Below, piece by piece: positions 25,790-62,358 of a stretch of 64,000 nt of DNA. The translations under genes and the position numbers were made by a program. The DNA is taken from the NCBI RefSeq assembly GCF_013423955.1, contig NZ_JACCKX010000001.1, positions 62,001 through 126,000 of the forward strand, read 5' to 3'. How positions within the stretch are numbered: the first letter of the stretch is position 1; each line of letters starts with the position of its first letter. The DNA comes from Ottowia beijingensis (lineage in GTDB: Bacteria; Pseudomonadota; Gammaproteobacteria; Burkholderiales; Burkholderiaceae_C). Below the pieces are notes generated by a model. It had not been told where the DNA came from, searched no databases, and saw only the letters and a list, made by a program, of their open reading frames with translations.

Positions 25790-25833
25790 AAAAACGGCTC
25801 CAGCGCCCGCCCAACAAGCGCCGGAAGCTACAA
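25790..25833. repeat. Family A repeat inside ligD N-terminal tail
   Basis: AAAACGGCTCCAGCGCCCGC ... AAGCGCCGGAAGCTAC, read in frame as KTKTAPAPAQQAPEATKLK. Confidence 0.75.
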
Positions 25834-26442
25834 AATTAAAGCGCCTGCACCCAGCACCGCCCTCGCCCGCTACCACGCCAGGCGCGACTTCACCCGCACG
25901 CCCGAACCGGCCGGCACCGTGGGCCCGCCCACAAAGGGCGCGCTGCAGTACGTCATCCACAAGCACTGGGCCACGCGCCTGCATTACGACCTGCGGCTGG
26001 AGCTGGACGGCACCATGCACAGCTGGGCCGTGCCCAAGGGCCCGAGCCTGGACCCGCGCGACAAGCGGCTGGCGGTGCAGGTCGAAGACCACCCGGTCGA
26101 CTACAACGACTTCGAGGGCCAGATTCCGGCCGGGCAGTACGGCGGCGGGCGCGTCATCATCTGGGACCGCGGCAGCTGGCAGCCCACCGGCGGCGTAGCC
26201 GCGGCGCGCGCCGGCCTGGCCAAGGGCGAGCTGAAGTTCCGCCTGCACGGCGCCAAGCTCACCGGCCTGTGGGCGCTGGTGCGCATGAAGCCGCGCGCCG
26301 GCGAACCGAAACCCGCCTGGCTGCTGATCAAGGACCGCGACGACGTGGCGCGTGCCGCCAGCGAGTTCGATGTGACCGAGGCGCTGCCCGATTCGGTCGG
26401 CCCGGCGCAGATCAAGGCCCGCCAGCCGCCCACCTCCCATTC

Positions 26443-26500
26443 CAAACCAAATCAGCCCCCAGCGCCCGCCAGTCAAGCGCAAGCAGCTATCGAAACGAAA
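26443..26500. repeat. Family A repeat inside ligD linker
   Basis: AAACCAAATCAGCCCCCAGC ... CAAGCGCAAGCAGCTATCG between the phosphoesterase and ligase domains. Read as KPNQPPAPASQAQAAIETK. Confidence 0.8.
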
Positions 26501-27465
26501 GCATCGAAAGCCGTGCCGCTGCCCGCCACCACCGCCCCGCAGCTTGCAAGCCTGATGCGCGAGCCGCCCGCCGACGCCGCCGACTGGCTGTGGGAGCTGA
26601 AGTTCGACGGCTACCGCCTGCTGGCGCGCATCGACGGCGGCCGGGCGCGCCTGTTCACGCGCAATGGCCTCGACTGGACAGCGCGCATGCCCGAGCTGGC
26701 GCGCGCCCTGGCCGCCCTGCCCGTGCGCCAGGCCTGGCTGGATGGCGAAGTGGCGATGCCGGGCGACGACGGCCTGCCCGACTTCGGCGCGCTGCAGAAC
26801 GCCTTCGACGGTGGCCGCAGCGCGGGCCTGGTGATGTACCTGTTCGACCTGCTGCACCTGGACGGCGCCGACCTGCGCGAGCAGCCGCTGACCGAACGCC
26901 GCGCCCGGCTCGAGGCGCTGCTGAAGCGCGCCAGGCGGCCCAAGACGTCGCCGCTGCGCCTGTCCGAGGCGTTTGACGAAGCGCCGCACAACCTGATCGC
27001 CAGCGCCTGCAGGCTGGGCATGGAGGGCATCATCGGCAAGCGGCGCGACGCGGCGTATCGGCCCGGCCGCAGCAGCGATTGGATCAAGCTGAAGTGCGGC
27101 CAGGGCGAGGAACTGGTGATCGCCGGCCACACCGAAGGCCAGGGCGCCCGCAGCGGCGAAGTCGGCGCGCTGGTGATGGCGGCGCACGACGCGGACGGAA
27201 AGCTGCGCTGGGCCGGCAACGTGGGCAGCGGCTTCGACACGCGCACGCTGGTGCGGCTGAAGGAAAAGTTGGCGCCCCTGAAAGTCAAGACCAGCCCGCT
27301 CGAAACCGGCCCCCAGCCGCCCGGCCGCGTGCACTGGGTGCGGCCCGAGCTGGTGGCGCAGATCAGCCATGCCGGCTTCACACACGCGCGCCGCCTGCGC
27401 CACGGCGTGTTCCGCGGCCTGCGCGAAGACAAGCTCGCGGCGGATGTGGTCTTCGAGCAGGATTC

Positions 27466-27517
27466 ATTGAAAAATCGGCCTCAGCGCCCGCCACACAAGC
27501 GCCAGCAGCTATTAAAA
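27466..27517. repeat. Family A repeat inside ligD second linker
   Basis: TTGAAAAATCGGCCTCAGCG ... CAAGCGCCAGCAGCTATTA between the ligase and polymerase domains. Read as EKSASAPATQAPAAIKTGS in the frame lying between two frameshifts. Confidence 0.8.
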
Positions 27518-28559
27518 CAGGATCAAAAGCCGCTGCCACACCAACCTTCAAGGGGCGCGGCGGCGGCGCCCTGTCGTCGGCGGGCAGGCCATCTCCAGCC
27601 CCGACCGCGTGGTCGATGCCAGCACCGGCACCACCAAGCTCGACATCGCCCGCTACTACGCCACCGTCGCCCCGCTGCTGCTGCCGCACCTTGACCAGCG
27701 CCCCGTCGCCTTGGTGCGCGCGCCGGATGGCATCGCGGGCGCGCTGTTCTTCCAGAAGCACCTGGAGCGCATCACCCTGCCCGGCGTGATTCAGCTCGAC
27801 CCCGCGCTCGACCCCGGCCACGCCAGCCTGCTCGAGATCGACAGCCTGCCCGGCCTGATGGGCGCGGTGCAGATGAACACGCTGGAGCTGCACACCTGGA
27901 ACGCCCGGCACGACCGCATCGAGCGCCCCGACCGCTTCGTCATCGACCTCGACCCCGGCGACGGCGTGCCGTGGGACAAGGTGCAGGAGGCCGCCCTGCT
28001 CACCCGCACCCTGCTGACCGAACTGGGCTTCACCCCGTTCTTGAAGACCAGCGGCGGCAAGGGCCTGCACGTCGTCACACCCATCAAGCGGCTGCACGAC
28101 TGGGACACGGTGAAGGGCTTTACCAAGCAGCTCACCGAGCATCTCGCGCGCCTGATGCCCGACCGCTTCAGCGCGCTCAGCGGGCCGAAGAACCGCGTCG
28201 GCAAGATCTACCCCGACTACCTGCGCAACGGGCGCGGGGCGACGACGGTGGCCGCGTGGTCGGCCAGGGCGCGCGCGGGGATCGGCGTGTCGGTGCCCAT
28301 CGGATGGGATGAACTGGCCGCAGTGACCGGCGGGGCGCATTGGCATCTTGGCAACGTCGAAGAGCGGTTGCGCGTGGGCGCGGGGCCTTGGGCGGGGTAT
28401 GACAAGGCGGCCGTGTCCATCGGCGGGCCGGCGAAGCAACTGGGCGCGGTGCGCCCCCGCGTGTGACGCAGGTGATCGCCCGCGCGCCCGACGGCTGCGC
28501 TATAACCCCTTGACACGGCGCCCAGCCGTTGGCCAATGACGTGTGTGGAAAGCCAAGCC

Positions 28560-29261
28560 ATGACCACCCTCACCCCCAAAATCCTCGCCTTCGACGTCTT
28601 CGGCACCGTGGTCGACTGGCACGGCAGCATCGTGGCCGAAATGGCGCGGCTGTACCCGCAGGTCGATGGCAACGCCTTCGCGCTGGCCTGGCGCGAGGGC
28701 TACCGGCCGGCGATGGCGCGCGTGATGTCGGGCGAACTGGGCTGGACGCGGATCGACGAACTGCATCGCATGATCCTCGACGACATCCTGCCGCGCTTCG
28801 GCCTGCAGGCCATGCCAGAGGCCGAGCGCCGCCTGCTCAACCGTGTCTGGCATCGGCTCAACGCCTGGCCCGACGTGGTGCCGGGCCTCATGCGGCTGAA
28901 GCAGCGGCACGTGATCTGCACGCTGTCGAACGGCAACATCGGCCTGCTCACCCACATGGCCAGGCACGCCCAGCTGCCCTGGGATTGCGTGCTCTCGGCC
29001 GAGGTGTTCCAGGCGTACAAGCCCGACCCGCGGGTGTACCGGGGCGTGGCCGAGGTGTTCTACGTGGCGCCGGCCGAGGTGATGATGGTGGCCGCGCACC
29101 AGGACGACCTGGCCGCCGCGCGCGCCTGCGGGCTGCTGACGGCCTACATCGAGCGGCCGCTGGAGTTCGGCGCCGGGCAGCCCAAGGACGTGTCGCCCGA
29201 GCCCGCCAACACGCTGCATGCGCGCGACTTCCTCGACCTGGCGGATCAGTTGGGCGCCTGA
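28560..29261 (+). CDS. Haloacid dehalogenase type II / HAD hydrolase
   Basis: 233 residues. The HAD nucleophile motif FDVFGTVVDWHG (D12) marks the type II 2-haloacid dehalogenase group; motif II is TLSNGN and motif III is AYKPDPRVY. The HQDDL near the end matches motif IV. Such enzymes hydrolyse L-2-haloacids, but many family members have other substrates. ATG 28536 is a possible alternative start 24 bp upstream. It lies just after ligD, without obvious functional linkage. Confidence 0.85.
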   Translation: MTTLTPKILAFDVFGTVVDWHGSIVAEMARLYPQVDGNAFALAWREGYRPAMARVMSGELGWTRIDELHRMILDDILPRFGLQAMPEAERRLLNRVWHRLNAWPDVVPGLMRLKQRHVICTLSNGNIGLLTHMARHAQLPWDCVLSAEVFQAYKPDPRVYRGVAEVFYVAPAEVMMVAAHQDDLAAARACGLLTAYIERPLEFGAGQPKDVSPEPANTLHARDFLDLADQLGA

Positions 29262-29269
29262 ACTTCTTT

Positions 29270-29321
29270 TTGATAGCTGCTCGCGCTTGGTGGGCGGGCG
29301 CTTAGGGCTGATTTGGCTTAA
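29270..29321. repeat. Family A dispersed repeat
   Basis: TTGATAGCTGCTCGCGCTTG ... GGGCGGGCGCTTAGGGCTGA followed by TTTGGCTTA. It is in the spacer before the asd leader region. Confidence 0.8.
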
Positions 29322-29412
29322 TTTACTGAAGATCAGGGCGCGGGCGTCGCATCCGCACATCAGCACGCCCGCGCGCAACCCCTGCACGGCGTGTGGCACG
29401 GGGTGACTGGGT

Positions 29413-29418
29413 TAGAAT
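29413..29418 (+). promoter_or_regulatory. Putative -10 box of the asd leader transcript
   Basis: TAGAAT ends 7 bases before the leader-peptide ATG, so a transcript from it would start at or next to the ATG (leaderless). No convincing -35 box is seen. Confidence 0.45.
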
Positions 29419-29425
29419 CGCCCCC

Positions 29426-29524
29426 ATGAACACGCCTGATCGCTTCGATTCCGCTGCCGCCGCTTCCGGCCAGCGCGCGTGCGTGCGCATCTCCCCCATT
29501 ACCACGACCACCCAAAAGGGCTGA
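29426..29524 (+). CDS. Putative Thr-rich leader peptide upstream of asd
   Basis: 32-codon frame MNTPDRFDSAAAASGQRACV continuing RISPITTTTQKG. The ATT ACC ACG ACC ACC run (Ile and four Thr codons) near its 3' end resembles attenuator leaders such as thrL. It precedes asd, whose product feeds threonine, isoleucine, methionine and lysine synthesis. The 91 bp between its stop and asd include the hairpin CCGGGC...GCCCGG (about 29555-29573), but no strong U-run. Regulation by threonyl-tRNA charging is an inference. Confidence 0.5.
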   Translation: MNTPDRFDSAAAASGQRACVRISPITTTTQKG

Positions 29525-29615
29525 CCAGCCCCGGTTCGTCGTGCGCGCCGCCTCCGGGCCAGACGAGCCCGGCAGGCCAGACAGTTCTTATATTGTTTGA
29601 AAGGCGCGAAGCAAA

Positions 29616-30752: not shown

Positions 30753-30774
30753 AGCCTCATAGAAAACGATAGCG

Positions 30775-30794
30775 GGCGCCGCTGCAACGGCGCC
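30775..30794 (+). terminator. Weak hairpin after asd
   Basis: GGCGCCG ctgcaa CGGCGCC, 7-bp perfect stem starting 22 bases after the asd stop. There is no T-run after it, so terminator function is uncertain. Confidence 0.45.
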
Positions 30795-30993
30795 GCCCGT
30801 TGTCGCAAGACAACATGGCCGTCCGAGATTCGAGCCTGTGTGAACTTGTGAAGATGGTTAACCAGTGTCTCAGCTTGTCAGCCTAATACGTTGATGTTAA
30901 TGTCGATTTTCATATTCGTTCCGGCGAGGCTTGGCCTGCCCAACACCAGACATGCAGAATAAAACCGCACAGGCTCCGCAGGGGTCGATCAAT

Positions 30994-38486: not shown

Positions 38487-38637
38487 CTTGATTATCAAGA
38501 AATTTCAGATCACGCGCGGACCGCATCCGCGGTGTGGCAGCGGGCTTGCCCGCGATGCGGCGCCTCGTCGCCACGAACGCTTGATCGCGGGCAAGCCCGC
38601 TCCCACAATGCTGTCTGAGACTTGTTGCTCATCAAGC
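38486..38637. repeat. Family C composite REP/MITE-like element, copy 1
   Basis: Outer inverted ends (CTTGATTATCAAGAAATTTC and GACTTGTTGCTCATCAAG) enclose a REP core: AGCGGGCTTGCCCGCGATG facing GATCGCGGGCAAGCCCGCT. About 152 bp. No gene is seen between it and yggT. Confidence 0.8.
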
Positions 38638-40144: not shown

Positions 40145-40294
40145 CTTGACTATCAAGAAGTCTCAGACCGTGTTGTAGGAGCGGGCTTGCCCGCGATGAG
40201 GCGCCTCGTCCCCACCAACGCTTGATCGCGGGCAAGCCCGCTCCCACACAGCGGATGAGTTCAGCGCGTCATCTGAGACTTCTTGATAATCAAG
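40145..40294. repeat. Family C composite REP/MITE-like element, copy 2
   Basis: CTTGACTATCAAGAAGTCTC at the left and GAGACTTCTTGATAATCAAG at the right are inverted copies. Inside, GAGCGGGCTTGCCCGCGATG faces GATCGCGGGCAAGCCCGCTC. About 150 bp, 47 bp before the NYN gene. Confidence 0.85.
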
Positions 40295-43217: not shown

Positions 43218-43293
43218 GGCTGCTCCGCGTCGCCCCGGATCGCGCCGATGGCCTTGCTGCCCCACAACCCCACGGCTTGACAGTCGGCGCTGT

Positions 43294-43370
43294 TGTGGGA
43301 GCGGGTTTGCCCGCGATGCGGCGCCCGGTCATCGCGGTGCCGCCCGATCGCGGGCAAGCCCGCTCCCACA
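43294..43370. repeat. Family C REP core, copy 3
   Basis: TGTGGGAGCGGGTTTGCCCG ... CGGGCAAGCCCGCTCCCACA, inverted arms of about 24 bp without the outer ends seen in copies 1 and 2. Confidence 0.85.
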
Positions 43371-43424
43371 CCGGGGCACGCATGCGCGTGTGGACATGCC
43401 AGGTCAGGCTGATTGCTTTCATAT

Positions 43425-43479
43425 TCATAGCTGCTCGCGCTTGTCTGGTGGGCGCTGAATGCCAATTTGGCACAAATTC
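43425..43479. repeat. Family A dispersed repeat
   Basis: TCATAGCTGCTCGCGCTTG ... GGTGGGCGCTGAATGCCAAT then TTGGCACAAATT. It lies in the spacer between the sugar transferase and the dehydratase. Confidence 0.75.
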
Positions 43480-43484
43480 CATGG

Positions 43485-44174
43485 TCATCGCAGCAGCGCC
43501 CGCACGGTGTCGAACAGGATGCGCAGGTCACCTGCCAAGGTGCGCTGCGCCACGTAGTCCAGGTAGTAGCGTTGTTTGACCGGCATGACACGTTCTATAT
43601 AGGCGCGCTCCGGATCAGTGGCATCGGCCAGCAGCCGCTCCTCATCGCGGAATTCGATGGCCGCCTGGTCGGTGATGCCCGGCCGCACGCTCAGGATCCG
43701 CCGGCGCACGTCATCGGCGTACAGCGCCATGTAGCGCGGCACCTCGGGGCGTGGGCCGACCAGGCTCATGTCGCCCTTTAGCACGTCAATCAACTGCGGC
43801 AACTCGTCCAGCTTGGTGGCGCGCAGCCAGCGGCCGGCGCGGGTGATGCGGGCATCGCCGGCCGCCGTGACCTGTGGCCCGCTGCCGTCATGCACGTGCA
43901 TGGTGCGGAACTTGTGGATGCGAAACGGCACGCCACCGCGCCCCACGCGCTCCTGCCGGAACAGCGCCGGCCCGGGCGAATCCAGCCGCACCCACAGCGC
44001 GATGGCCGCCATCAATGGCAGTGCCGGCAGCAGCGCGGCCAGCGTCAGCGCCAGGTCCATCGCGCGCTTGGTGGCGGCGCCGCGCGCGGTCACAAGCCGC
44101 ACACTCTCATCTTTCGATAGCTGCCCGCGCTTGCCAGTCGGGCGCTGCAGGCCCAAAACGCTTGAAAACCCCAT
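43485..44174 (-). CDS. Undecaprenyl-phosphate sugar-1-phosphate transferase
   Basis: 229 residues of the bacterial sugar transferase (PglC/WcaJ C-terminal) family: KRAMDLALTLAALLPALPLM forms the re-entrant membrane helix; FRQERVGRGGVPFRIHKFRTM and KLDELPQLIDVLKGDMSLVG are the catalytic motifs. It loads the first sugar phosphate on undecaprenyl phosphate. ATG 44174 follows the aminotransferase stop by 4 bases; GTG 44189 is an alternative. The N-terminal about 20 residues are encoded by a family A repeat, so the start could also be the later GTG at VRLVTARG. Confidence 0.9.
   Translation of the reverse strand: MGFSSVLGLQRPTGKRGQLSKDESVRLVTARGAATKRAMDLALTLAALLPALPLMAAIALWVRLDSPGPALFRQERVGRGGVPFRIHKFRTMHVHDGSGPQVTAAGDARITRAGRWLRATKLDELPQLIDVLKGDMSLVGPRPEVPRYMALYADDVRRRILSVRPGITDQAAIEFRDEERLLADATDPERAYIERVMPVKQRYYLDYVAQRTLAGDLRILFDTVRALLR
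44115..44166. repeat. Family A repeat at the 5' end of the sugar transferase gene
   Basis: TCGATAGCTGCCCGCGCTTG ... CGGGCGCTGCAGGCCCAAAA. Translated on the gene strand as LGLQRPTGKRGQLSK, a different frame from the ligD copies. Confidence 0.7.
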
Positions 44175-44178: not shown

Positions 44179-45336
44179 TCATCGCACACAGGCTTTCAGC
44201 GCCGCGATCACGCGCGTCTGCTCTTCATCGCTCATCGAGGTGAACAGCGGAACGCTCAGCATGCGCTGGTAAGCGTGCTCGGCCACGGGGAACTGCTCAG
44301 GCGTCAAGCCGTAGCGGTCGCGCCAATAGGGCTGGCGGTGCAGCGGCACGTAATGCACGCTGGTGCCGATGCCGGCATCGCTCAATGCCTGGATCACCTC
44401 GTCGCGCGTCACCCGGGCATCGTCCCGAAGGCGGATCACGAACAGGTGCCAGGCATGCGTTTCGCCTGGCGGTGCGTCGGCGGGCAGGATCAGCGGCAGG
44501 GCTTTCAGCTCGTGCAGATAGCGCGCCGCCAGTTGCTGCCGACGCTGCACGAAAGCCGGCAGTCGCTGCAACTGCACGCGGCCCAGCGCGCCGGCCATGT
44601 CGGTCATGTTGTATTTGAAGCCGGGCGCGACGATTTCGTAATACCAGGCGGGCGTCTTGCTGCTGAAGCGGTCGAACGCATCGCGGCTGATGCCGTGCAG
44701 GCGCATCACCCGCATGCGTGCGGCGAGCTGCTCATCCTTCGTGACCACCATGCCGCCCTCGCCGGTCGTCATCGTCTTGTTGGCGTAGAAGCTGAACACC
44801 GCGGCAGCGCTGGGCAACTGGCCGACCAGCGCTCCATTGGCAGTCGTGGGCAGCGCGTGCGCGGCGTCCTCCACCACCTGCAGGCCGTGGCGGCGCGCGA
44901 TGTCGAAGATAGCCGCCATGTCGCACGCCAGGCCGCCGTAGTGCACGGGCAAGATGGCCTTGGTTCGCGGGGTGATGGCCGCCTCGATCTGCGCCGGGTC
45001 GATGTTCAGCGTGACCGGATCCACGTCCACCAGCTTCGCATCCGCGCCCAGATAGCGCGCCACCTCCACCGTGGCGGTGAAGGTCAGCGTCGGCGCGATC
45101 ACCTCGTCGCCCTGCGTGACGCCGATGGCTTCCAGCGCCAGGTGCAGACCGGCCGTGGCGGAGTTGACGGCGATGGCCTGCACACCGCCGCCCAGATAGG
45201 CGGCGAACTCCTGCTCGAAGGCCTTGGTCTCGGGGCCGGTGGTGACCCAGCCCGAGCGCATGGCGCGCGCCACGGCGTCGATTTCGGCCTCGGTGATGTC
45301 AGGGCGGGCGAAAGGAAGGAACGGTGAGGTGTTCAT
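44179..45336 (-). CDS. DegT/DnrJ/EryC1/StrS sugar aminotransferase
   Basis: 385 residues, PLP-dependent transfer of an amino group to a keto sugar. The PLP lysine is in [28 protein letters not shown] and EDAAHALP are cofactor motifs. Beside a 4,6-dehydratase this fits formation of a 4-amino-4,6-dideoxy sugar (PglE-like). ATG 45336 was chosen over ATG 45342 for better homology. Confidence 0.94.
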
Positions 45337-45339
45337 GAT

Positions 45340-45385
45340 CAAATCCGGCTTCAGCGCTTTTCCATTCGGCGCAAGAAGCTATCAT
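45340..45385. repeat. Family A dispersed repeat
   Basis: TCAAATCCGGCTTCAGCGC ... CGGCGCAAGAAGCTATCATT, filling the short gap between GT2 and the aminotransferase. Confidence 0.75.
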
Positions 45386-45389
45386 TAAG

Positions 45390-46436
45390 CTAGCGCGTCA
45401 GTCGGCTCCAGTGCTGCCCGGCACGGCGTTTCAGCAGCAGATCGGTCAGGCCGCGCCAGGTGCCGACGCCATAGCCCAGATGATAGGCGGCGATCACCAA
45501 GGGCAGGCGCGCCAGCAAACCCCACTCGCCCGCCTGCCGCGCCGCTGCCAGCGAGGTGCCGGCCAGGTACAGCGCGTAGCTGGCCAGCAAGACCCCCAGC
45601 GGCCAGGGCCACCAGGGCGCCAGCAGCGCACCGCCCGCCAGCGCCAGCACGAACAGCGCCGGCACCAGTTGCCGCACCGATCCGGGCTGGCCGTGTTTGC
45701 GCATCACGAACGGACGCCAGTAACCGTACTGCTGCTGCTGGCGGAACAGGTCACTCAAACGGCTGCGCGGCTGGTACACCGAGCGGATGCGCGCGCTTTG
45801 CCAAAGGCGCGCGCCTTGCAAACGCAGGCGCAGGTTGTGCTCGTCGTCCTGATTGCGCACCAGCTGTTCGTCGAAACCGCCGAAGCGCTCGAACACGGCG
45901 CGCGGCCAGCAACCCAGGTAGAGGGTGTCGGCCTCGCCCTCGTAGGCACGGTCGCGCGAGCGCGCGCCGCCGACCACCCAGCGGCACTGGAAGGCCGCCG
46001 CAATCGCGCGCCCGGTGGCGCCCTGCCCGCGCGCCACCCACGGGCCGCCCACGTTGTCGGCACCGGTGCGCGCCAGCGCGGCCAGGCATTCGGCCAGGTA
46101 GTCGGGCGCAAATTCGGTGTGGATGTCGAAGCGCGCGATGACGGCGCCGCGCGCCGCGGCCAGCGCGGCGTTCAGGCCGGTGGAAACGATGCGGTCCGGG
46201 TTGTCGATGAGCTTCAGGCGCGCGTCCTGCGCGGCACGCTCGGCCAACCGTTCGCGCGTGCCGTCGTCGCTGCGGCCATCGGCCACCAGCACCTCGAGCT
46301 GCCAGCCGGGCGGCAACTGCTGCGCCAGGGCGCTGTCGCAGAAGGCGTCGATGGCGGCGCGCTCATTGCGGCAGGGGGCGATCACGCTGATGAGCTGGGG
46401 CGCGGATGGGGCAGCCGAATGCAGGGGCGAGTTCAT
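45390..46436 (-). CDS. Family 2 glycosyltransferase with C-terminal membrane helices
   Basis: 348 residues. GT-A fold: ISVIAPCRNERAAIDAFCDS, LVADGRSDDGTRE and the DxD-like ARFDIHTEFAPDYL; QDDEHNLRLRL is the acceptor-side motif. Two or three hydrophobic helices (about 260-320) anchor it in the inner membrane. It resembles ExoA-type succinoglycan glycosyltransferases. The sugar and acceptor are not predictable. Confidence 0.9.
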   Translation of the reverse strand: MNSPLHSAAPSAPQLISVIAPCRNERAAIDAFCDSALAQQLPPGWQLEVLVADGRSDDGTRERLAERAAQDARLKLIDNPDRIVSTGLNAALAAARGAVIARFDIHTEFAPDYLAECLAALARTGADNVGGPWVARGQGATGRAIAAAFQCRWVVGGARSRDRAYEGEADTLYLGCWPRAVFERFGGFDEQLVRNQDDEHNLRLRLQGARLWQSARIRSVYQPRSRLSDLFRQQQQYGYWRPFVMRKHGQPGSVRQLVPALFVLALAGGALLAPWWPWPLGVLLASYALYLAGTSLAAARQAGEWGLLARLPLVIAAYHLGYGVGTWRGLTDLLLKRRAGQHWSRLTR

Positions 46437-46462: not shown

Positions 46463-46629
46463 GCCCTCACCCTGGCCTCTCCCGCCAGCGGGAGAGGGAG
46501 AAAAGCGAGCGCTGCCGTCCTCCTGCTCATGCAGCCAAGGCTTGGGCTGGCAGGCAGCAGGTCGCGTTGCTCCACTTCGCCCAGGTCTTGCCCCTCTCCC
46601 GCTGGCGGGAGAGGGTTGGGGTGAGGGCA
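46463..46629. repeat. Family D palindromic repeat pair
   Basis: CCTCTCCCGCCAGCGGGAGA near the left end and CCCTCTCCCGCTGGCGGGAG near the right, bounded by GCCCTCACCCTGG and TTGGGGTGAGGGC. It fills the 200-bp spacer between the two glycosyltransferase genes. Confidence 0.85.
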
Positions 46630-46636
46630 TGGCGCA

Positions 46637-47704
46637 TCACGGCGCGCGCCCTTTCCACTCATCCAGCAAGCGCCGGTACATCGCATCGGCCGCATCCATC
46701 TGCACGCGGCGGTCGCCGTCGCGGGCGATGCGCTCGGCATTGCGCGCGCCGGCCTCGCGGGCCTGTGCCTCCTGGTCGATCAAGTGGCCCCACACGCGGG
46801 CCAGCGCGCGCGCATCGCCCGCGGGCACCAGCATGCGCGCGTCGAGCCAGTCGCGGTTGGCCGGCAGGTCGCTGCCGATCACGGCCAGACCGCAGGCCAT
46901 GCTTTCGAGCACCGAGACGGAAGTCGCATCGCTGTGCGGCACGCTGATGGACAGTTTGCAGCGCGCCAGAACGGCGGCCATGCCGGCATCATTCAGGCGG
47001 CCATGCACCTGCACGGCGTCGGTCAGCCCGAGTTGGGCGATCTGCGCGCGCAGCGCCGGCTCCTGCGAGCCGCCGCCCAGCAGGTGCAGCCGCGCTTGCG
47101 GGTGGGTCGAATGCACTCGCGCGAAGGCTTCCAGAATGGTCCCGATGGCGTAATTCGGCTCCCAGCTGCGCAGGCTGACGGCCTCGAAGCCCGGCTTGCC
47201 GTCCCAGGGCGCGGGGGCGAAGCGGGCGCGTTCCACGCCCCAGTGAATCAGCTCGGTGCGCACACCGGGCGCCAGCACGCGTGCGGCGGCCAGCAGATCG
47301 GGCGAGTCGCCGGTCACGCCATCGGCCTGGCGCAGCGTCCAGGCCGTCAGGTGGCGCTTGAGGGCGCTTTCCTTCGGCGTGACCAGCAGGTCGCTGCCCC
47401 AGGCGGTCATCACCAGCGGGTGACGGCCGGCGCGCGCGGCCAGGTAGCCATACGAGGTAACGTAATGCGCGTGCACCAGATCGGGCGCCAGCGCCGCCAC
47501 CGCGCGCCGCGCCGCGCCCACGCGCCACAGCCAGTCGGTGGCGCGGCGCACGGGCGGCAGCACGATTTGCTGTACGCCCTCGATGGCTTGTGGCCGCGCC
47601 GTGACCAGCGACAGGCGCCAGCCGCGCGCCAGCATCTCGCGCGCCCAGCGCTGCACGTGCACGCTGTTGGCGTCGCCGAGCAGGCAGATGTGGTGGGCAG
47701 TCAT
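46637..47704 (-). CDS. Family 4 (GT-B) glycosyltransferase
   Basis: 355 residues. The N-terminal HHICLLGDANSVHVQRWARE and the C-terminal nucleotide-sugar site SVPHSDATSVSVLESMACGL (E-x7-E type) mark the GT4 family. Retaining glycosyltransferase acting on the cytoplasmic side. Linked by strand and spacing to the glycan locus. Confidence 0.92.
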   Translation of the reverse strand: MTAHHICLLGDANSVHVQRWAREMLARGWRLSLVTARPQAIEGVQQIVLPPVRRATDWLWRVGAARRAVAALAPDLVHAHYVTSYGYLAARAGRHPLVMTAWGSDLLVTPKESALKRHLTAWTLRQADGVTGDSPDLLAAARVLAPGVRTELIHWGVERARFAPAPWDGKPGFEAVSLRSWEPNYAIGTILEAFARVHSTHPQARLHLLGGGSQEPALRAQIAQLGLTDAVQVHGRLNDAGMAAVLARCKLSISVPHSDATSVSVLESMACGLAVIGSDLPANRDWLDARMLVPAGDARALARVWGHLIDQEAQAREAGARNAERIARDGDRRVQMDAADAMYRRLLDEWKGRAP

Positions 47705-47735
47705 GGTTGCCGGGCGCTGTGAGGCGCTTCTCTAT

Positions 47736-47790
47736 TCATAGCTGCTCGCGCATGTCCATCAAGCGCTGAGGTCCGATTTGGCTTGAAATT
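47736..47790. repeat. Family A dispersed repeat
   Basis: TCATAGCTGCTCGCGCATG ... CATCAAGCGCTGAGGTCCGA then TTTGGCTTG. Between the acyltransferase and GT4 genes. Confidence 0.8.
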
Positions 47791-47804
47791 TTTGGCCCCT
47801 GCCA

Positions 47805-49660: not shown

Positions 49661-49720
49661 GGGTGGTGAAAACCGACAGGCGGGTTGAACAAGAAGCGTG
49701 GTGGTCGACGGCTCGGGATA

Positions 49721-49795
49721 TGTGGGCGCGGGCTTGCCCGCGATCAGCCTCCGCGCCGCACGGAACGCGCCATCGCGGCCAAGGCCGCTCCCACA
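49721..49795. repeat. Family C REP core, copy 4 (diverged)
   Basis: TGTGGGCGCGGGCTTGCCCG ... CATCGCGGCCAAGGCCGCTC followed by CCACA. In the divergent spacer between the flippase and lysS. Confidence 0.75.
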
Positions 49796-51421: not shown

Positions 51422-51469
51422 TGGCGCCGCGCCTTGGACGCTGCATCCAAGGCTGGATTTTCAATCGTT

Positions 51470-51512
51470 TAGGGCTGAAATTCTTATCCAGCAAGCGCGA
51501 GCAGCTATGAAT
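51470..51512. repeat. Family A dispersed repeat
   Basis: TTAGGGCTGAAATTCTTATC ... AGCAAGCGCGAGCAGCTATGA. Between lysS and the sterol desaturase gene. Confidence 0.7.
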
Positions 51513-52510
51513 CAGGTAGCAACCGATTCAGGAGCGCGCCGCGCGCCGGCGCGTTCGCCCAGCAGCCGCCGCAGCCCCAGCCACTGCTGCGCCCAGAAGC
51601 CGCGGCCATAGTCGCGGCCCTGCAGCACCTGGTCGTCGATGCCGGTGGCGTCCAAGCCGGGGCGCCAGTCGGCGCTGCCAAACAGCAAATCCCACCACGA
51701 AAACAGCACGCCGTAGTTGGCGCCGTAGGGCGACAGAGGCTGCGAACCCGGCTCGTGTCCCAGCGCGATGGCGTGGTGGCGGCGGTGAAAGCTGGGGCTG
51801 ACCAGCAGCCTGTTGCCCAGCCAGCCCCACGACCAGCGCAGGTTGGCGTGGTGCAGGCTTTCCAGCAGTTGCGTGACGGCCACCAGCGCCACGAACTGCG
51901 CGGGGGCCACGCCGATCAGGATGGCGGCGCAGACGAAGATCACGTCGGTGATCACCGAATCCAGCAGGTGGTTGCGGTTGTCGGTCCACATCGTCATCTG
52001 GCGCTGGCTGTGGTGCACGGCGTGCAGTTGCCACCACCAGTGCCAGCGGTGCTGTGCGCGGTGGATGAGGTAGCCGATCAAGTCGAACACCACCAGGTAG
52101 ATCAGGAAGCTGACCCACGCGCGGTCCGTCACGCCGGGCCACAGCTGGTCGATCTGCAGCGTGGGCAGGCCGTGCGCGCGCAGCCAGCCGATGCCCTGCG
52201 TCAGCCACAGCTCGACGCTGAAGAACATCACCAGCTTGAACAGGCCCAGGCGGTGGATCAGCGTGTAGATCACGTCGATGCCGATGGCGTGGCGGTCGGT
52301 CACCCGCTCCACCGGCCACAGGCGCTGCAGGGGGCCGATGACGGCCAGCATCACCACGATCTGCAGCACGCCCGCCAGCAGCCAGCCGGTGGCGGCAAAG
52401 CCGTCTTCCAGCAGGTTGCCGGCGCCCAGGCCAAAAGCCAGCGGCTGCACGGCGGTTTCGAACAGCCACTGCTGCGCGGTCTCGAACGCATCGGTCAGGG
52501 TGGCCAGCAT
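51512..52510 (-). CDS. Sterol desaturase / fatty acid hydroxylase superfamily protein
   Basis: 332 residues, several membrane helices. The three histidine clusters of the di-iron site are present: HRAQH, HAVHHS and SFHRRHH, with an additional LLESLHHANL. Bacterial members hydroxylate or desaturate lipids, carotenoids or hopanoids; the substrate is unknown here. Confidence 0.9.
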   Translation of the reverse strand: MLATLTDAFETAQQWLFETAVQPLAFGLGAGNLLEDGFAATGWLLAGVLQIVVMLAVIGPLQRLWPVERVTDRHAIGIDVIYTLIHRLGLFKLVMFFSVELWLTQGIGWLRAHGLPTLQIDQLWPGVTDRAWVSFLIYLVVFDLIGYLIHRAQHRWHWWWQLHAVHHSQRQMTMWTDNRNHLLDSVITDVIFVCAAILIGVAPAQFVALVAVTQLLESLHHANLRWSWGWLGNRLLVSPSFHRRHHAIALGHEPGSQPLSPYGANYGVLFSWWDLLFGSADWRPGLDATGIDDQVLQGRDYGRGFWAQQWLGLRRLLGERAGARRAPESVAT

Positions 52511-52655: not shown

Positions 52656-53500
52656 CAGCCGCCATGGGTGCTGATCCAGGTCTGGTAATCGGGGTGCTCG
52701 CGCAACGTGCGAAAGCAGAAGCCACGGCTTTTGAGCCCGCTGACCAGCGGCTCCAGCACGTCGGGCGCCCACGGGTCCTGGCGTGACCAGATGCCCAGGT
52801 GTGCCATCAGGATGTCGCCCGCGCGAATATCGCGCAGCGCCTTGGCCAGCAAGGCGCTGTTGGGGTACTGGCCGCTGGGCAGCTCGTCGCCCAGAAAGCC
52901 GGCCGGCGCCCAGCCCACGTGCTTGAAGCCGCAGGCTTCGGCCGCGGCCAGCAGCCTGGGCGAGGTCTTGCCGCCCGCGGCGCGGAACAGCGGCAGCGGC
53001 TTCTTCACAGTGACGGATGACAGCCGGTCGGCCCCCAGCTGCAGGTTGCCGCAGTACTGCGCGGCGGTCCAGGTCAGCGTCTTGCCGGCCTGCGCCCCGG
53101 ACGACGGGCGAATGCGAAAGCGCGGCTCGCCGCCCGGCTGCGCCGGCGGCAGGTCGGCCTGCCAGTAGGCGTGGTCCCAGGTGTGCGATGCGAACTCATG
53201 CCCCTCGGCCGCACGCGCCTTCCACCACGGCGCCCAGTGCCGGCCCAGCGTGCCGTCGCCTTCCTTCGTGCGCTCCTGCGCGGCGAAGAAGGTCGCCTTG
53301 ACGCCCTGGCGCTTCAGCACCTCGGCCACCAGCGGCGCCACGCCCATGTGGCCGGTGTCGAAGGTCAGGTACACCGGCTTGCAGGGTTCAGGGCCGTTTT
53401 GGGCTGCAGCCGTTGTGCAGACGGCGCTGGCAGCTATCATGAAAATAGCAAACAGACCGCGACGCGCTGACTGCGGGCGTCGCGCATCCGGACGACGCAT
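52655..53500 (-). CDS. Secreted polysaccharide deacetylase
   Basis: 281 residues. Signal peptide (about 13-33, ending TTAAAQN) then a NodB-like deacetylase fold: VYLTFDTGHMG (first catalytic Asp), EFASHTWDHAYW (H-x3-H metal site) and ILMAHLGIWSRQDPW near the end. It removes N- or O-acetyl groups from a polysaccharide or peptidoglycan in the periplasm. The longer frame (to 53551) starts within a palindromic repeat, so ATG 53500 was preferred. Confidence 0.9.
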   Translation of the reverse strand: MRRPDARRPQSARRGLFAIFMIAASAVCTTAAAQNGPEPCKPVYLTFDTGHMGVAPLVAEVLKRQGVKATFFAAQERTKEGDGTLGRHWAPWWKARAAEGHEFASHTWDHAYWQADLPPAQPGGEPRFRIRPSSGAQAGKTLTWTAAQYCGNLQLGADRLSSVTVKKPLPLFRAAGGKTSPRLLAAAEACGFKHVGWAPAGFLGDELPSGQYPNSALLAKALRDIRAGDILMAHLGIWSRQDPWAPDVLEPLVSGLKSRGFCFRTLREHPDYQTWISTHGG

Positions 53501-53543
53501 GCCCTCAGCCCCGCCCTCTCCCGCACGCGGGAGAGGGTGCCAG
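53501..53543. repeat. Family D palindromic repeat, short copy
   Basis: GCCCTCAGCCCCGCCCTCTC then CCGCACGCGGGAGAGGGTGC, immediately upstream of the deacetylase start. Confidence 0.7.
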
Positions 53544-53570
53544 GCCCGCAACGATTCATCCGAGACCGAT

Positions 53571-55617: not shown

Positions 55618-55672
55618 AGCCTGACAGCGCGCCACGGGGCATGGTGTGGAGCGGCCCCTGCCCACCAACCCC

Positions 55673-55710
55673 TGTGGGAGCGGGCTTGCCCGCGATGCGG
55701 CGGCCATGCT
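55673..55710. repeat. Family C REP half-copy
   Basis: TGTGGGAGCGGGCTTGCCCG then CGATGCGG; only one arm of the REP palindrome is present. Confidence 0.7.
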
Positions 55711-55797: not shown

Positions 55798-55853
55798 CCA
55801 CCACCGCATCGACAGGCTGAAACCACGGCGGGGACAGCGGCCCGCCGCACGAC

Positions 55854-57492: not shown

Positions 57493-57520
57493 CCGCGCAG
57501 AAACGCCCCGCACCGCTCCA

Positions 57521-58110: not shown

Positions 58111-58206
58111 GGCGCCGATTGTCCACGGCGCGCGCCGGCTTCCTGGCGGCGCCGGCCTGCAGCGGCGCCACGCGCCCTAAACTCCGGGGTTGCAGCCGCC
58201 CTGCCC

Positions 58207-59535: not shown

Positions 59536-59546
59536 GTGGCACAGGC

Positions 59547-59903
59547 ATGAGTTCCAAGCCAAATCAGGCTCCATCGCCCGTCCATCAAGCGCTGGCAGCT
59601 ATTGAATTGGAAGCATTCTTGAGCACCTTGCCCGGCTGGCGCACCACCACATTGAACGCTGCTCCCGCCATCGAGAAGCACTGGCGCCTGCCCGGTTTCC
59701 GCCAGGCCATGGCGCTGGCCCAGGCCGTGGCCGACCTGGCCGAGCAGTTGAACCATCACCCTGATTTGCTGGTCAGCTACGGCCATTGCACCGTGCGCTG
59801 GACCACGCACGACGCCGGCGGCGTCACCGCGCTCGACCTCGACGCCGCCCGCCACACCGACGCCCTGGCCGAGCGCCTGGGCGCCACCGCGCACACCGCA
59901 TGA
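59547..59903 (+). CDS. phhB: Pterin-4a-carbinolamine dehydratase
   Basis: 118 residues. Recycles the oxidised pterin cofactor. LNHHPDLLVSYGHCTVRWTT and HDAGGVTALD contain the conserved histidines. Residues 4-21 (KPNQAPSPVHQALAAIEL) are encoded by a family A repeat, so the N-terminus is not native to the family. Its TGA overlaps the rsgA ATG. No phenylalanine hydroxylase gene is adjacent. Confidence 0.9.
   Translation: MSSKPNQAPSPVHQALAAIELEAFLSTLPGWRTTTLNAAPAIEKHWRLPGFRQAMALAQAVADLAEQLNHHPDLLVSYGHCTVRWTTHDAGGVTALDLDAARHTDALAERLGATAHTA
59556..59608. repeat. Family A repeat at the 5' end of the pterin dehydratase gene
   Basis: AAGCCAAATCAGGCTCCATC ... TCCATCAAGCGCTGGCAGCT, read as KPNQAPSPVHQALAAIE. 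Confidence 0.85.
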
Positions 59904-60976
59904 GCCGCCCGCGCCGCGCGCCCGCCCCCGCCGATGCGCGCCTGCGCGAAGGCCTGGTTGTCAGCGCGCATGGCCGTCACTGCGTGGTCGAGACGCCCGC
60001 CGGCGAGCGCGTCATCTGCCACCCGCGCGGCAAGAAGCTGGCCGTGGTGGTGGGCGACCGCGTGCGCTGGCTGCCCAGCCAGGACGAGGGCACCATCGAG
60101 CGCATCGACGAGCGCCGCAACCTGCTCTACCGCCAGGACGAGGTGCGTACCAAGAGCTTCGCCGCCAATCTGGATCAGGTGCTGATCCTCGTCGCTGCCG
60201 AGCCGGAGTTTTCAGAGCACCAGCTGGCCCGCGCCCTGATCGCCTGCGAGGCCGAGCACATCGAGCCGCTCATCGTGCTCAACAAGGCCGATTTGACCGA
60301 GCCCTTCGCCCGCGCCTGGGCGCGCCTGGCGCCGTACCGCGCCATGGGCTACACGGTGCTGCCGCTGGCGGCCAAGCCGGCGCACCCTCACCACAACCCA
60401 CTCCCGCCGGCGGGAGAGGGCGACAAGCGCCCCACCCGCAGCCTCGTCGGAGTTACTCCCTCGCCCCTCTGGGGAGAGGGCTGGGGTGAGGGGCGACGGC
60501 GATGCCATCACCGCCTGCTCGTTCGAAGCGCTGCTCGCCCGCCTGCACGGCCACACCACCCTCATCCTCGGCCCCAGCGGCGCCGGCAAGAGCACCCTCA
60601 TCAACCGCGCCGTCCCCGGCGCTGCCGCGCAGACCGGCGAAATCTCGCAGGCGCTGAACAGCGGCAAGCACACCACCACCACGACCACCTGGTACTGGCT
60701 GGACGACGCCCGCATCAGCGCCCTCATCGACTCCCCGGCTTCCAGGAATTCGGCCTGCGCCACATCGACCCGATGCAACTCGCCGCCTACATGCCCGACA
60801 TCAAGCCGCACGTGGCCGAGTGCCGGTTCTACAACTGCACGCACCTGCACGAGCCGGGGTGCGGGGTGCGAGCGGCGGTCACGCCCGATGCCCAAACGCC
60901 CGCCAGCGCCTCAGCAATCGGCGCCAATCGCTACAAGATTTACAGCGATTTGTTTGCCGAACTGCATGGCGCGTGA
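59900..60976 (+). pseudogene. rsgA: Ribosome small-subunit GTPase RsgA (repeat insertion, two frameshifts)
   Basis: Circularly permuted GTPase for 30S maturation: OB domain (GLVVSAHGRHCVVET), G4 VLNKADL, then G1 GPSGAGKST, the switch [10 protein letters not shown]3 DSPG and the zinc motif [15 protein letters not shown] 110-bp palindromic repeat (60383-60492) sits between LPLAAKPA and [13 protein letters not shown]. The frame shifts at the end of the repeat (GAGGGGCGAC, one G short) and at TCCCCGGC (60736-60739, one C short); adding both bases gives one open frame with about 35 extra residues. Confidence 0.9.
60383..60492. repeat. Family D palindromic repeat inside rsgA
   Basis: CACCCTCACCACAACCCACTC then CCGCCGGCGGGAGAGGG at the left, CTCTGGGGAGAGGGCTGGGG then TGAGGGG at the right. 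Same family as 46463-46629. Confidence 0.85.
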
Positions 60977-60986
60977 CGCCGCCGCG

Positions 60987-61018
60987 GTAGGCTGGCGTTG
61001 AGCGAAGCGAAACCCAGC
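60987..61018. repeat. Family F palindromic repeat, copy 1
   Basis: GTAGGCTGGCGTTGAGCGAA then GCGAAACCCAGC. An inverted partner lies at 61201-61229. Confidence 0.65.
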
Positions 61019-61052
61019 GCGCCACCCTGTGCAGCCGCAGGGTGTCGACAAA

Positions 61053-61119
61053 AATGGGGAGTATGCTTGTCCAGCACCCGTCCATCCTGCGCTACAAGAA
61101 ACATGCATAGGGAGTATGT
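61053..61119. repeat. Family B dispersed repeat, copy 4
   Basis: TGGGGAGTATGCTTGTCCAG, core CACCCGTCCATCCTGCGC, end GCATAGGGAGTATGTA. GGGAGTATG direct repeats bound it. It lies between the two family F copies. Confidence 0.75.
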
Positions 61120-61200
61120 AAAGCGACTGGGTCACGGATCATGCTCATGCCAACGAAGCTTCGCCCCGCTGAAGACCCCAAGGCGCGGATCGACGCGAAC

Positions 61201-61229
61201 GCTGGGTTTCGTGCCTCAACCCAGCTACG
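61201..61229. repeat. Family F palindromic repeat, copy 2
   Basis: GCTGGGTTTCGTGCCTCAAC then CCAGCTACG, inverted relative to 60987-61018. The 263-bp gap 60977-61239 holds only these repeats. Confidence 0.65.
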
Positions 61230-61239
61230 CGCCGCGATT

Positions 61240-61652
61240 TCAGCGGCGAGTAACCGAGATGACATAGAGCAGAACGCCCGGTAACGTGCCGGCCAACCCG
61301 GCTACCCAGAAAGCAATCAGCCGCTCGTCCACCCCGGCGGTGAGCCAACCCACCAGGCCCCTGATCAGTTGAAACGGCGCGACGTACATCGCGACGCGCA
61401 CCAGGCGATGGCGTCGGGCGAACTCGGCCAACTGTTGCAATGGGTCGTCGTCGCGAAACGCGTAGACGACACCCAGCACCGTCGCTCCCCACACGATCCC
61501 AATGCCGATGACGGCCAATGCCACTTGCACCGCTCTCCCCACTGGCCCGGAACACCAGCGACGACGAGCGATAAAGCAAAGATCGCGAAGCCGCGCAGAC
61601 TCCAACGCAGACTCGCGTCGCGGTGGCTCTCGCCTTCCTTGCGCCACTTCAC
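61240..61652 (-). pseudogene. Small membrane protein of the MCE operon (one frameshift)
   Basis: About 137 residues in two frames. The start MKWRKEGESHRDASLRWSLR from GTG 61652 overlaps the lipoprotein stop (GTGA). The second part VALAVIGIGIVWGATVLGVV ... LAGTLPGVLLYVISVTRR ends at 61240. Three predicted membrane helices. The frame changes near 61530-61545. I do not recognise the family. Confidence 0.6.
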
Positions 61653-62358
61653 GGTGTTGCCGGGGAGGTGAGCGGCTGCACCAAATCCATCCGCCGCCTG
61701 ACCCTTGCCGCCTCCGCCGCATCCCCCGCTGCTCTGCCAACCTTGCCTGCACGCCCAGCCACGCCAGCAGCGGGCGGCGCCAGCCCTGGTGGGAGGCGGT
61801 TTCGACGGCCTGCTCGACCACCGCCGGGCTGGCCTGGGTGCGACGCAGCAGCACGCCGGCGGCGATGAGGCGGCCGAGCGGGTCGTCGGCCGGGGGCAGC
61901 GCGGCGCTGGCGGCGCCCGCCGCCACGGCGCGGTGGTGCTCGGGCAGCAGCGCGGCCTGGGCGGCGGTGAGGATGCGACCGTCCAGGTAATCGGCGTAGG
62001 CTCGCTCCGCGTCGCCCGCGTCGGCGCGCAGCTGCTCGAAGCCGGTGCAGGGCTCGAACACCAGGCTGGCGACGCGGGTGGCGCAGCGGTTGAGTTCGAT
62101 GCGCGCCACCTGATCGGGCTTGCCGGTGCGCGCGGTTTCGGCGCGGGCCAGCTCGAACTCGCGCGCCTCGACGCGGTGGTCGCCCTTCAAATACGCCTCG
62201 GTGAAGCGCTCGATGTGGCCGATGGCGTTGATCTTCCAGTCGGGCACCTTGGGGCCGCTGCTGCAGCCGGCCAGCATCACTATTGAAACAATAGCTGTTA
62301 GCGCTTGATGGACGGGCGCTGAAGGCCATTTTGGCTTGTAAACTGCAAAGGGCGTCAC
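61649..62358 (-). CDS. Lipoprotein of the MCE operon (3' frameshift)
   Basis: About 236 residues. The lipobox MLAGCSSG follows a hydrophobic segment; the rest is helical and Ala-rich (RFTEAYLKGDHRVEAREFEL, RCATRVASLVFEPCTGFEQL). GTG 62358 overlaps the MCE stop (GTGA). The N-terminus up to ALTAI is encoded by a family A repeat. The frame breaks at CGGGGGATG near 61734; one extra G gives EQRGDAAEAARVRRRMDLVQ and the stop at 61649. The function is unknown; it probably assists the MCE transporter. Confidence 0.75.
62289..62341. repeat. Family A repeat at the 5' end of the lipoprotein gene
   Basis: CAATAGCTGTTAGCGCTTGA ... GACGGGCGCTGAAGGCCATT then TTGGCTTGT. On the gene strand it is read as KPKWPSAPVHQALTAI. 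Confidence 0.85.

What the first reader, a model, noticed from the sequence alone, without database searches (positions are those of the whole stretch)
25790..62341. A dispersed repeat (family A) that is read as a similar peptide inside unrelated proteins
Five in-gene copies (three in ligD, one in the pterin dehydratase, one in the lipoprotein) are all translated in the same orientation and frame, giving KTKTAPAPAQQAPEATKLK, KPNQPPAPASQAQAAIETK, EKSASAPATQAPAAIKTGS, KPNQAPSPVHQALAAIELE and KPKWPSAPVHQALTAIVSI. These are linkers or N-termini, where extra residues are tolerated. A repeat that can enter genes and be read as a flexible Ala/Pro/Gln peptide would be a source of new protein segments. 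At least two other forward/reverse frames of the consensus are also open, so the shared frame is not forced by stops alone.
Basis: partly seen in the sequence, partly recalled or inferred. Interest (0 to 1): 0.72.

Follow-up and report, generated by a model that had tools for sequence, protein, structure and literature searches.

The report
Uptake-signal-like DNA motif inside housekeeping genes
A roughly 65-base DNA signature scattered about every three kilobases through these Ottowia genomes also lies inside essential genes, where it is read as harmless alanine-rich loops; it behaves like the 'self' tags some bacteria use to recognise their own DNA for uptake, rather than like a jumping element.

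Summary
The repeat is real and abundant: 155 copies in 464 kb of this genome, 107-140 per 400 kb in four same-genus genomes. The genus is Ottowia. Two in ligD lie off frame here, but intact ligD in four relatives reads 9 of 9 copies in s1, and this assembly also breaks dapE, rimO and comEC. In-gene copies are far from even over frames: s1 69, antisense a2 49, s0 3 of 164. A repeat that "enters" genes is not the best reading. Copies behave as near-independent draws from a weight matrix. In dapF the motif is present or absent in loops of equal length, with synonymous codons fitted to it. Orthologous copies follow each species' own dialect. Spacing is more even than chance in one genome; the four copy-free 20-kb stretches are among the seven least typical of 100. 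Best explanation: a long DNA-uptake-signal-like motif, unproven, in a family with reported selective transformation (PMC4212676). No uptake assay was possible.

The parts
25777..25846 (+). motif copy at the N-terminal end of ligD (between ku and the phosphoesterase domain)
   Evidence: PWM score 56; read s1 at the N-terminus of intact ligD of G009, G010, G015, G019; off the ligD frame in this assembly
26436..26505 (+). motif copy in the ligD phosphoesterase-ligase linker, read KPNQPPAPASQAQAAIETK (s1)
   Evidence: score 63, inside ORF 25919-27694
27458..27527 (+). motif copy in the ligD ligase-polymerase linker
   Evidence: score 55; s1 in G009, G010, G015, G019; this assembly changes frame across it
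25919..27694 (+). ligD phosphoesterase + ligase ORF
   Evidence: Pfam LigD_N, DNA_ligase_A_M, DNA_ligase_A_C
27609..28466 (+). ligD polymerase ORF, in another frame
   Evidence: Pfam LigD_Prim-Pol
59548..59617 (+). motif copy forming the N-terminus of a pterin-4a-carbinolamine dehydratase
   Evidence: score 70; Pfam Pterin_4a; s1 in 8 of 11 genomes shown, none found in G011, G003, G007
62276..62345 (-). motif copy forming part of a lipoprotein signal peptide
   Evidence: score 75; s1, core 55 nt before the Cys codon, in own, G022, G009, G023; an antisense copy 41 nt further on in G010, G015, G019, G017, G020
17242..17311 (+). motif copy inside a called gene 16713-17660 (s1)
   Evidence: score 48
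29258..29327 (-). motif copy just after the stop codon of the gene ending at 29261 (HAD-like by recall; no family search run)
   Evidence: score 57
43412..43481 (-). intergenic motif copy
   Evidence: score 69
44102..44171 (-). intergenic motif copy
   Evidence: score 53
45328..45397 (+). intergenic motif copy
   Evidence: score 57
47723..47792 (-). intergenic motif copy
   Evidence: score 62
51454..51523 (+). intergenic motif copy
   Evidence: score 65
53383..53452 (+). intergenic motif copy
   Evidence: score 57
7908..8016 (.). head-to-head pair of copies (subtype sharing a central GATTTCA...TGAAATC palindrome)
   Evidence: scores 49 and 58, starts 39 apart; like pairs at 3377/3417, 10035/10075, 38385/38424

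Best explanation
The repeat is one instance of a genome-wide DNA recognition motif, about 65 bp and 50-58 bits, kept in place across many Ottowia and part of the Comamonadaceae. Most likely it works as a DNA uptake signal. During natural transformation a surface receptor would favour fragments that carry it. Recombination would then spread and refresh it at permissive places: gaps between genes, least often between diverging genes, and loops, linkers, termini and signal peptides of core proteins. Inside genes it survives mostly where it can be read as small, harmless residues: sense frame s1 (..APALAGQAQAAIK..A) or antisense a2 (..IAASAGTAGAEGQ..). Shown: abundance, frame bias, fit of synonymous codons at dapF, near-independence of copies, species dialects shared by orthologous copies, more even spacing in one genome, four copy-free stretches of atypical DNA. 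Inferred: that the driving force is uptake and recombination, and that a type IV pilus receptor reads it.
For: Copies: own 155 in 464 kb; G010 140, G013 112, G019 126, G023 107 per 400 kb; 0 in one mononucleotide shuffle of each set. Frames of 164 in-gene copies: s1 69, a2 49, a0 21, s2 16, a1 6, s0 3, against 38, 36, 4, 33, 24, 29 expected from stop-free frames of intergenic copies. DapF: at one fixed register synonymous codons fit the motif with z above 3 in 11 of 18 Ottowia and 29 of 78 named loci, control windows mean -0.57; 27 of 49 named loops of 22 aa have it, 0 of 15 loops of 19 aa. Dialects: 29 orthologous copies at 7 sites, own-species matrix best in 20 after centring (15 raw), 0 of 20,000 within-site label permutations as high; G019's word TACAACCATCTGCGC matches 13-15 of 15 letters at 4 of its 6 orthologous sites, while the sisters match 5-9 there. 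Linkage between positions is almost gone beyond 10 nt in four of five genomes. Spacing CV 0.81 vs 0.99 and 0.62 vs 0.93 in null placements. 4 of 100 stretches have no copy, 0.22 expected; they rank 1, 2, 5 and 7 of 100 for low codon typicality. ComEC in 26 of 29 Ottowia. Acidovorax and Verminephrobacter transform naturally, apparently selectively (PMC4212676).
Against: No uptake experiment exists for it here. Known uptake signals are short (9-11 bp in PMC4212676; 12 recalled); this is about 65 bp. The motif is patchy: several Ottowia with ComEC have almost none (G011 13 and G006 13 pattern matches), so ComEC does not predict it. Spacing was tested in one genome only. Copies are somewhat more alike than column-shuffled ones (best partner 0.686 vs 0.657 in G010; 0.686 vs 0.600 in the own genome, which holds subtypes). 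Ottowia DapF and RimO loops are longer with the motif, so insertions also happened; but long loops without it exist too (DapF G014, G024; RimO G001, G012). A third frame, a0, is also above expectation (21 against 4; 11 of the 21 score 40 or more). Copy number correlates with codon typicality clearly in two of five genomes only, and one atypical stretch, L115, has 4 copies. No receptor was sought.
Confidence: 0.55

Rival explanations
1. A mobile palindromic element (REP/MITE type) that inserts into intergenic DNA and tolerant gene loops and is filtered by reading frame: the first reader's reading.
For: Palindromic core, head-to-head pairs, loops longer with the motif in Ottowia DapF and RimO, depletion between divergent genes, known REPs inside genes (PMC3733652). 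GTAG occurs as weak letters near the right end of the G010 and G023 consensuses.
Against: Pairs of copies alike at 0.85 or more occur only where a flank is identical too; the one other pair at 0.80 (G010) has flanks of 0.68 and 0.25. Copies behave as near-independent draws; dapF has the motif without change of length; orthologous sites change dialect together; stem positions hardly covary. G015 and G016 show no Y1 transposase yet 482 and 392 pattern copies. 20 of 29 Y1 loci of about 3.3 kb hold a copy, about what the copy density alone predicts.
Confidence: 0.15
2. A chromosome-organising or other protein-binding site (nucleoid or segregation factor) needed every few kilobases and kept by selection at each site.
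For: More even spacing, both orientations, AA/TT swaps at the A-tract positions that suggest DNA shape, absence from atypical stretches.
Against: Selection of some 50 bits at over a thousand sites, reaching into essential enzymes and changing by species, is costly without a drive (inference); family members exist with almost none.
Confidence: 0.2
3. A transcribed element (terminator or RNA hairpin) that happens to overlap genes.
For: Enriched between convergent genes in the own genome (39 of 112 against 15% of intergenic bases) and more weakly in G013 (22 of 63 against 27%); not in G010 (21 of 93 against 20%).
Against: No clear strand preference, little covariation in the stem, copies in both senses inside coding genes, no Rfam match at gathering score in the window.
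Confidence: 0.07

Closest known systems
DNA uptake sequences (DUS, Neisseriaceae) and uptake signal sequences (USS, Pasteurellaceae)
   Same: Hundreds to thousands of dispersed copies and one orientation commoner in the reading frame (PMC2346458, abstract); species dialects (PMC3630211, passages); permissive places of the core genome, absent from recently acquired genes (PMC2397512, passages)
   Different: About 65 bp with a palindromic centre instead of 9-12 bp; another bacterial family; uptake not tested; receptor unknown
REP/BIME elements with RAYT transposases
   Same: High copy number, palindromic core, intergenic preference, some copies inside genes (PMC3733652, abstract and passages)
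   Different: GTAG tag at best weak and not shared by all dialects; genomes without a Y1 transposase match keep hundreds of copies; almost no copy genealogy
Beta-proteobacterial repeat element BRE (PMC3110155, one section and passages)
   Same: Short repeat of Burkholderiales, some copies inside coding sequences, found in Polaromonas, Delftia, Acidovorax
   Different: Bordetella BREs average 69% GC and at most 29 were counted per genome; this motif is 49-54% GC in genomes of 65-68% GC and far more numerous. BRE letters were not available to compare
Rickettsia palindromic elements and enterobacterial RU sequences read as peptides
   Same: Small repeats translated inside unrelated proteins (RU: PMC2759123, abstract; RPE: recalled and listings)
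   Different: Those are described as inserted mobile sequences; here in-place formation and dialect change are seen

Membership tests
DNA uptake sequences (DUS/USS) | hundreds to thousands of dispersed copies in both orientations | tested here: met
   264 + 285 exact core-pattern matches in the own genome against 1 + 0 for the reversed pattern; 107-155 matrix copies per 400-464 kb
DNA uptake sequences (DUS/USS) | species-specific dialects | tested here: met
DNA uptake sequences (DUS/USS) | coding copies in preferred frames | tested here: met
   s1 69, a2 49, a0 21, s0 3 of 164
DNA uptake sequences (DUS/USS) | absent from recently acquired DNA | tested here: inconclusive
   4 of 100 stretches empty, ranks 1, 2, 5, 7 for low typicality, but L115 (rank 4) has 4 copies; of the 18 distinct genes I chose from 5 copy-poor stretches only some look phage-like
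DNA uptake sequences (DUS/USS) | more even spacing than random | tested here: met
   one genome, 300 kb and 100 kb; 2.6% and 1.3% of null placements as even or more so
DNA uptake sequences (DUS/USS) | short core of 9-12 bp | tested here: not met
   information spreads over about 65 bp; 50.0, 57.9 and 55.8 bits in own, G010, G013
DNA uptake sequences (DUS/USS) | raises DNA uptake or transformation | not testable with these tools
   needs an uptake assay
DNA uptake sequences (DUS/USS) | cognate receptor (minor pilin) | not tested
   no pilin search was run; only ComEC
REP elements with RAYT | GTAG or CGTC tag at one end | tested here: inconclusive
   by eye: GTAG as weak letters near the right end in 2 of 5 consensuses (G010, G023), ATAG in G013 and G019, neither in own
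REP elements with RAYT | associated Y1 transposase | tested here: not met
   no match in G015 and G016 (86% and 99% complete), which hold hundreds of copies; 2 of 3 own Y1 loci have no copy within about 1.5 kb; 20 of 29 Y1 loci elsewhere have one, near the chance level
REP/MITE mobile elements | recent near-identical copies and empty sites | tested here: not met
   sites without the motif only between species, and in dapF without change of length; strains of one species not compared
BRE (PMC3110155) | ~90 bp, about 69% GC | tested here: not met
   49-54% GC; sequence not compared

The most novel reading that the evidence does not exclude
A third family of DNA uptake signals, in the Comamonadaceae: a long, palindrome-centred, dialect-forming motif, first seen outside Pasteurellaceae and Neisseriaceae, that accounts for the selective transformation of Acidovorax and Verminephrobacter and reshapes loops of many core proteins (31 of 332 called genes in the G010 sample hold a copy).
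Probability: 0.5. Interest if true: 0.9.

Novelty: new variant of a known kind. Interest (0 to 1): 0.78.

Why it matters
If true, sequence-based recognition of self DNA has arisen in another large bacterial family, with a much longer signal, and the selective transformation reported for Acidovorax and Verminephrobacter gains a testable signal. It would also show a DNA tag writing residues into essential enzymes (DapF, DapE, RimO, Cca, RlmD, LigD), a route by which a process about DNA, not protein, shapes protein loops and signal peptides. Even if the function differs, dialect change at orthologous sites is a clear case of concerted evolution that needs a cause.

Tried and rejected
RAYT-driven REP: 2 of 3 own Y1_Tnp loci have no copy nearby; motif-rich G015 and G016 show no match; 20 of 29 further Y1 loci hold a copy, as the density alone predicts (several of these loci overlap each other). 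Hairpin or RNA element: little covariation, no clear strand bias (three genomes), no Rfam hit at gathering score in the window. Phage origin: one motif copy found no match among 50,697 phage records. Plasmids: one copy gave only weak matches in 17 records, 11 of them to Agrobacterium virD2 and one to a Diaphorobacter aceF. BRE: GC content differs. ComEC as a predictor of copy number: present nearly everywhere, so not informative. Literature: ten full-text searches listed no paper that I recognised as describing this motif; the library holds open-licence PMC papers only, and I saw listings plus parts of seven papers. In the own genome alone the frame bias was weak (s1 9, s2 7, a2 6, a0 3, a1 2, s0 1 of 28), probably because its indels spoil gene calls; the bias rests on the four other genomes. 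The frame expectation uses intergenic copies over 60 nt and my own simple codon-based gene caller; ten host proteins chosen by me (8 from G010, 2 from G013) were checked with Pfam and all ten had a hit above a family cut-off. In one search the z at the dapF site is that of the best-scoring of five matrices, while control windows average over all five, which favours the site a little; the two-peaked outcome does not depend on it.
Full report
OBSERVATION. The window holds 28 copies of the repeat by position-weight matrix (score 20 or more). 155 copies lie in 464 kb sampled from this genome, none in one mononucleotide-shuffled control. The core pattern GCGCNNNCAGCTAT occurs 549 times in the genome against 1 for the reversed control. 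Extrapolating the matrix density gives about 1,400 copies per genome. The same assembly breaks dapE, rimO and comEC into pieces, so indels in the assembly are the likely cause. Intact ligD ORFs of G009, G010, G015 and G019 read 9 of 9 copies in s1, at the N-terminus and the domain linkers; the ligD loci of G011, G003, G033, G034 and G042 show none. G023's ligD is itself broken and G018's locus is partial; neither was counted.

ORGANISM. One relative, G019, has a contig of the same length (428,034 bases) and dapF at the same place as Ottowia sp. GY511, so the genus is Ottowia, Comamonadaceae.

WHERE COPIES LIE. In five genomes 411 of 640 copies are intergenic, 65 partial and 164 inside called genes (intergenic/partial/inside: own 115/12/28, G010 94/13/33, G013 65/12/35, G019 77/13/36, G023 60/15/32). 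In the three genomes tested, intergenic copies are depleted between divergent genes (own 9 of 112 against 25% of intergenic bases, G010 11 of 93 against 26%, G013 4 of 63 against 19%). They are enriched between convergent genes in own (39 of 112 against 15%), weakly in G013 (22 of 63 against 27%), not in G010 (21 of 93 against 20%). There is no clear strand preference.

FRAMES. Of 164 in-gene copies 69 are s1, 49 a2 (antisense), 21 a0, 16 s2, 6 a1, 3 s0. Expected from stop-free frames of intergenic copies: 38, 36, 4, 33, 24, 29. So two frames carry 118 of 164 copies, not one, and s0 is avoided though often open. Frame a0 is also above its small expectation; 11 of its 21 copies score 40 or more. 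Pfam confirms ten hosts that I chose: a PolyA_pol-head protein (Cca by recall), a UPF0004/radical-SAM/TRAM protein (RimO by recall), a tRNA_U5-methyltransferase-family protein (RlmD by recall), Kdo transferase, a lumazine-binding protein (RibE by recall), a biotin carboxylase, an Lhr-type helicase, diaminopimelate epimerase (DapF), an M20 peptidase (DapE by recall), an enoyl-CoA hydratase.

NOT A COPY-PASTE FAMILY. The median nearest partner of a copy is 0.61-0.69 identical. Pairs at 0.85 or more occur only where a flank is identical too; one further G010 pair reaches 0.80 with flanks of 0.68 and 0.25. After removing such near-duplicates (2 in G010, 1 in G013), copies are only somewhat more alike than column-shuffled ones, and dependence between positions is 0.000-0.003 bits beyond 10 nt in G010, G013, G019 and G023. 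The own genome keeps 0.012-0.013 bits and the largest excess likeness (0.686 against 0.600), in line with its subtypes. Stem positions hardly covary beyond chance. The A-tract positions 14-15 swap AA for TT, seen in the top linked pairs (the swap itself read from the copies).

KEPT IN PLACE WITHIN GENES. dapF was examined at one fixed register in 18 Ottowia and 78 of 80 named Comamonadaceae loci (L300 and L340 lacked the anchor; L273-L275 look like the same loci as G014, G015 and G019). Real codons beat 300 synonymous recodings with z above 3 in 11 of 18 and 29 of 78 (3.5 to 7.7); the others run from -2.0 to 2.9; control windows average -0.57 with sd about 0.85. Among named loci with a 22-aa loop 27 have the motif and 22 do not; none of 15 with a 19-aa loop has it. 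In Acidovorax, Diaphorobacter and others the left box is made of the native Trp-Pro-Leu codons. At dapE, G011 has the same loop length without the motif. In Ottowia the DapF loop is 30-34 aa with the motif, and RimO loops with it are also long, so insertion happens too; but G014 and G024 (DapF) and G001 and G012 (RimO) have long loops without a recognised copy.

DIALECTS. Species consensuses differ in the centre. G019's word TACAACCATCTGCGC matches 11 or more of 15 letters in 70 of 126 of its copies, but in 1 of 155, 2 of 140, 0 of 112 and 1 of 107 in own, G010, G013 and G023. At seven orthologous sites in four loci (29 copies; sites were found with the matrices of own, G010 and G013) the own-species matrix, built without the copy tested, fits best in 20 of 29 after centring, 15 of 29 raw; 0 of 20,000 within-site permutations reached the mean residual. 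Two sites in G019 (dapF and one beside dapE) do not carry the dialect. In the lipoprotein signal peptide, own, G022, G009 and G023 have a sense copy whose core starts 55 nt before the Cys codon, while G010, G015, G019, G017 and G020 have a weaker antisense copy (38-52 bits) starting 14 nt before it; G007, G014, G003, G011 and G006 have none. In G013, G016 and G018 the anchor was not found; one search puts a sense copy in G013 and an antisense one in G016. So the two orientations overlap but are 41 nt apart, which looks like separate origins.

DISTRIBUTION AND DRIVE. Spacing in G019 is more even than null placement (CV 0.81 vs 0.99, 2.6% of nulls at or below; 0.62 vs 0.93, 1.3%). Four of 100 stretches of 20 kb have no copy (0.22 expected by Poisson); they rank 1, 2, 5 and 7 of 100 for low codon typicality and have 55-64.5% GC against a median of 67.5%, but the stretch ranked 4 has 4 copies. 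Of genes chosen from them and from copy-poor L040, L122 has a phage tail protein and efflux genes, L038 a phage-family protein with a weak tail match, L114 SbcC- and PLD-like genes, L040 a RecE-like exonuclease; several had no match. Copy number correlates with codon typicality clearly in own and G023 only.

INTERPRETATION. These features match uptake sequences: frame preference (PMC2346458, abstract seen), dialects (PMC3630211, passages), permissive core positions and absence from new genes (PMC2397512, passages). In the Comamonadaceae, A. temperans, A. facilis and V. eiseniae are naturally transformable; Acidovorax strains were not transformed by DNA of another Acidovorax species, and V. eiseniae showed signs of selective uptake (PMC4212676, passages and part 1 of 2 of the discussion); no motif is named in what I saw. 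I therefore favour an uptake-signal-like motif, with function inferred. It is not filed as a DUS or USS because the short-core feature is not met and uptake was not tested.

One search was run for it; the lipoprotein statement, the a0 result, the GTAG test, the Y1 counts and several numbers were mended.

Noticed in passing
38527-38607, 40168-40248, 43287-43377, 49715-49795, 55670-55709: A second dispersed palindrome, GGGAGCGGGCTTGCCCGCGAT...ATCGCGGGCAAGCCCGCTCCCACA, like Pseudomonas REPs by recall.
   Followed up: no
46463-46513, 46592-46648, 53481-53552, 60385-60435: A third palindromic repeat, CCCTCACCC..CTCTCCCGC..GCGGGAGAGGG.
   Followed up: no
3377/3417, 7908/7947, 10035/10075, 38385/38424: Head-to-head motif pairs 39-40 bp apart sharing a GATTTCA...TGAAATC palindrome: a subtype of the motif.
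   Followed up: partly
21620, 52587, 55753: Copies bounded by GGGGAGTAT or its reverse instead of the usual flanks: a further subtype.
   Followed up: no
25700-28466: ligD is out of frame at two motif copies; dapE, rimO and comEC are also broken in this genome, which suggests assembly indels.
   Followed up: partly
G000 contigs C2, C3, C4: The three small contigs list several of the same motif sites in the same order, so they look like versions of one region (capped list).
   Followed up: no
62276-62345 and L353-L369: In the lipoprotein signal peptide the motif has opposite orientation and a shifted place in two groups of species.
   Followed up: partly
G013 (L124, L134-L152): One relative holds 20 Y1 transposase matches, several with the same score, some split in two frames: perhaps an IS200-like burst.
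   Followed up: no
H2, NZ_CP080763.1 10691-10734: A weak match of a window copy lies in aceF of a Diaphorobacter plasmid, another protein with Ala/Pro linkers by recall.
   Followed up: no
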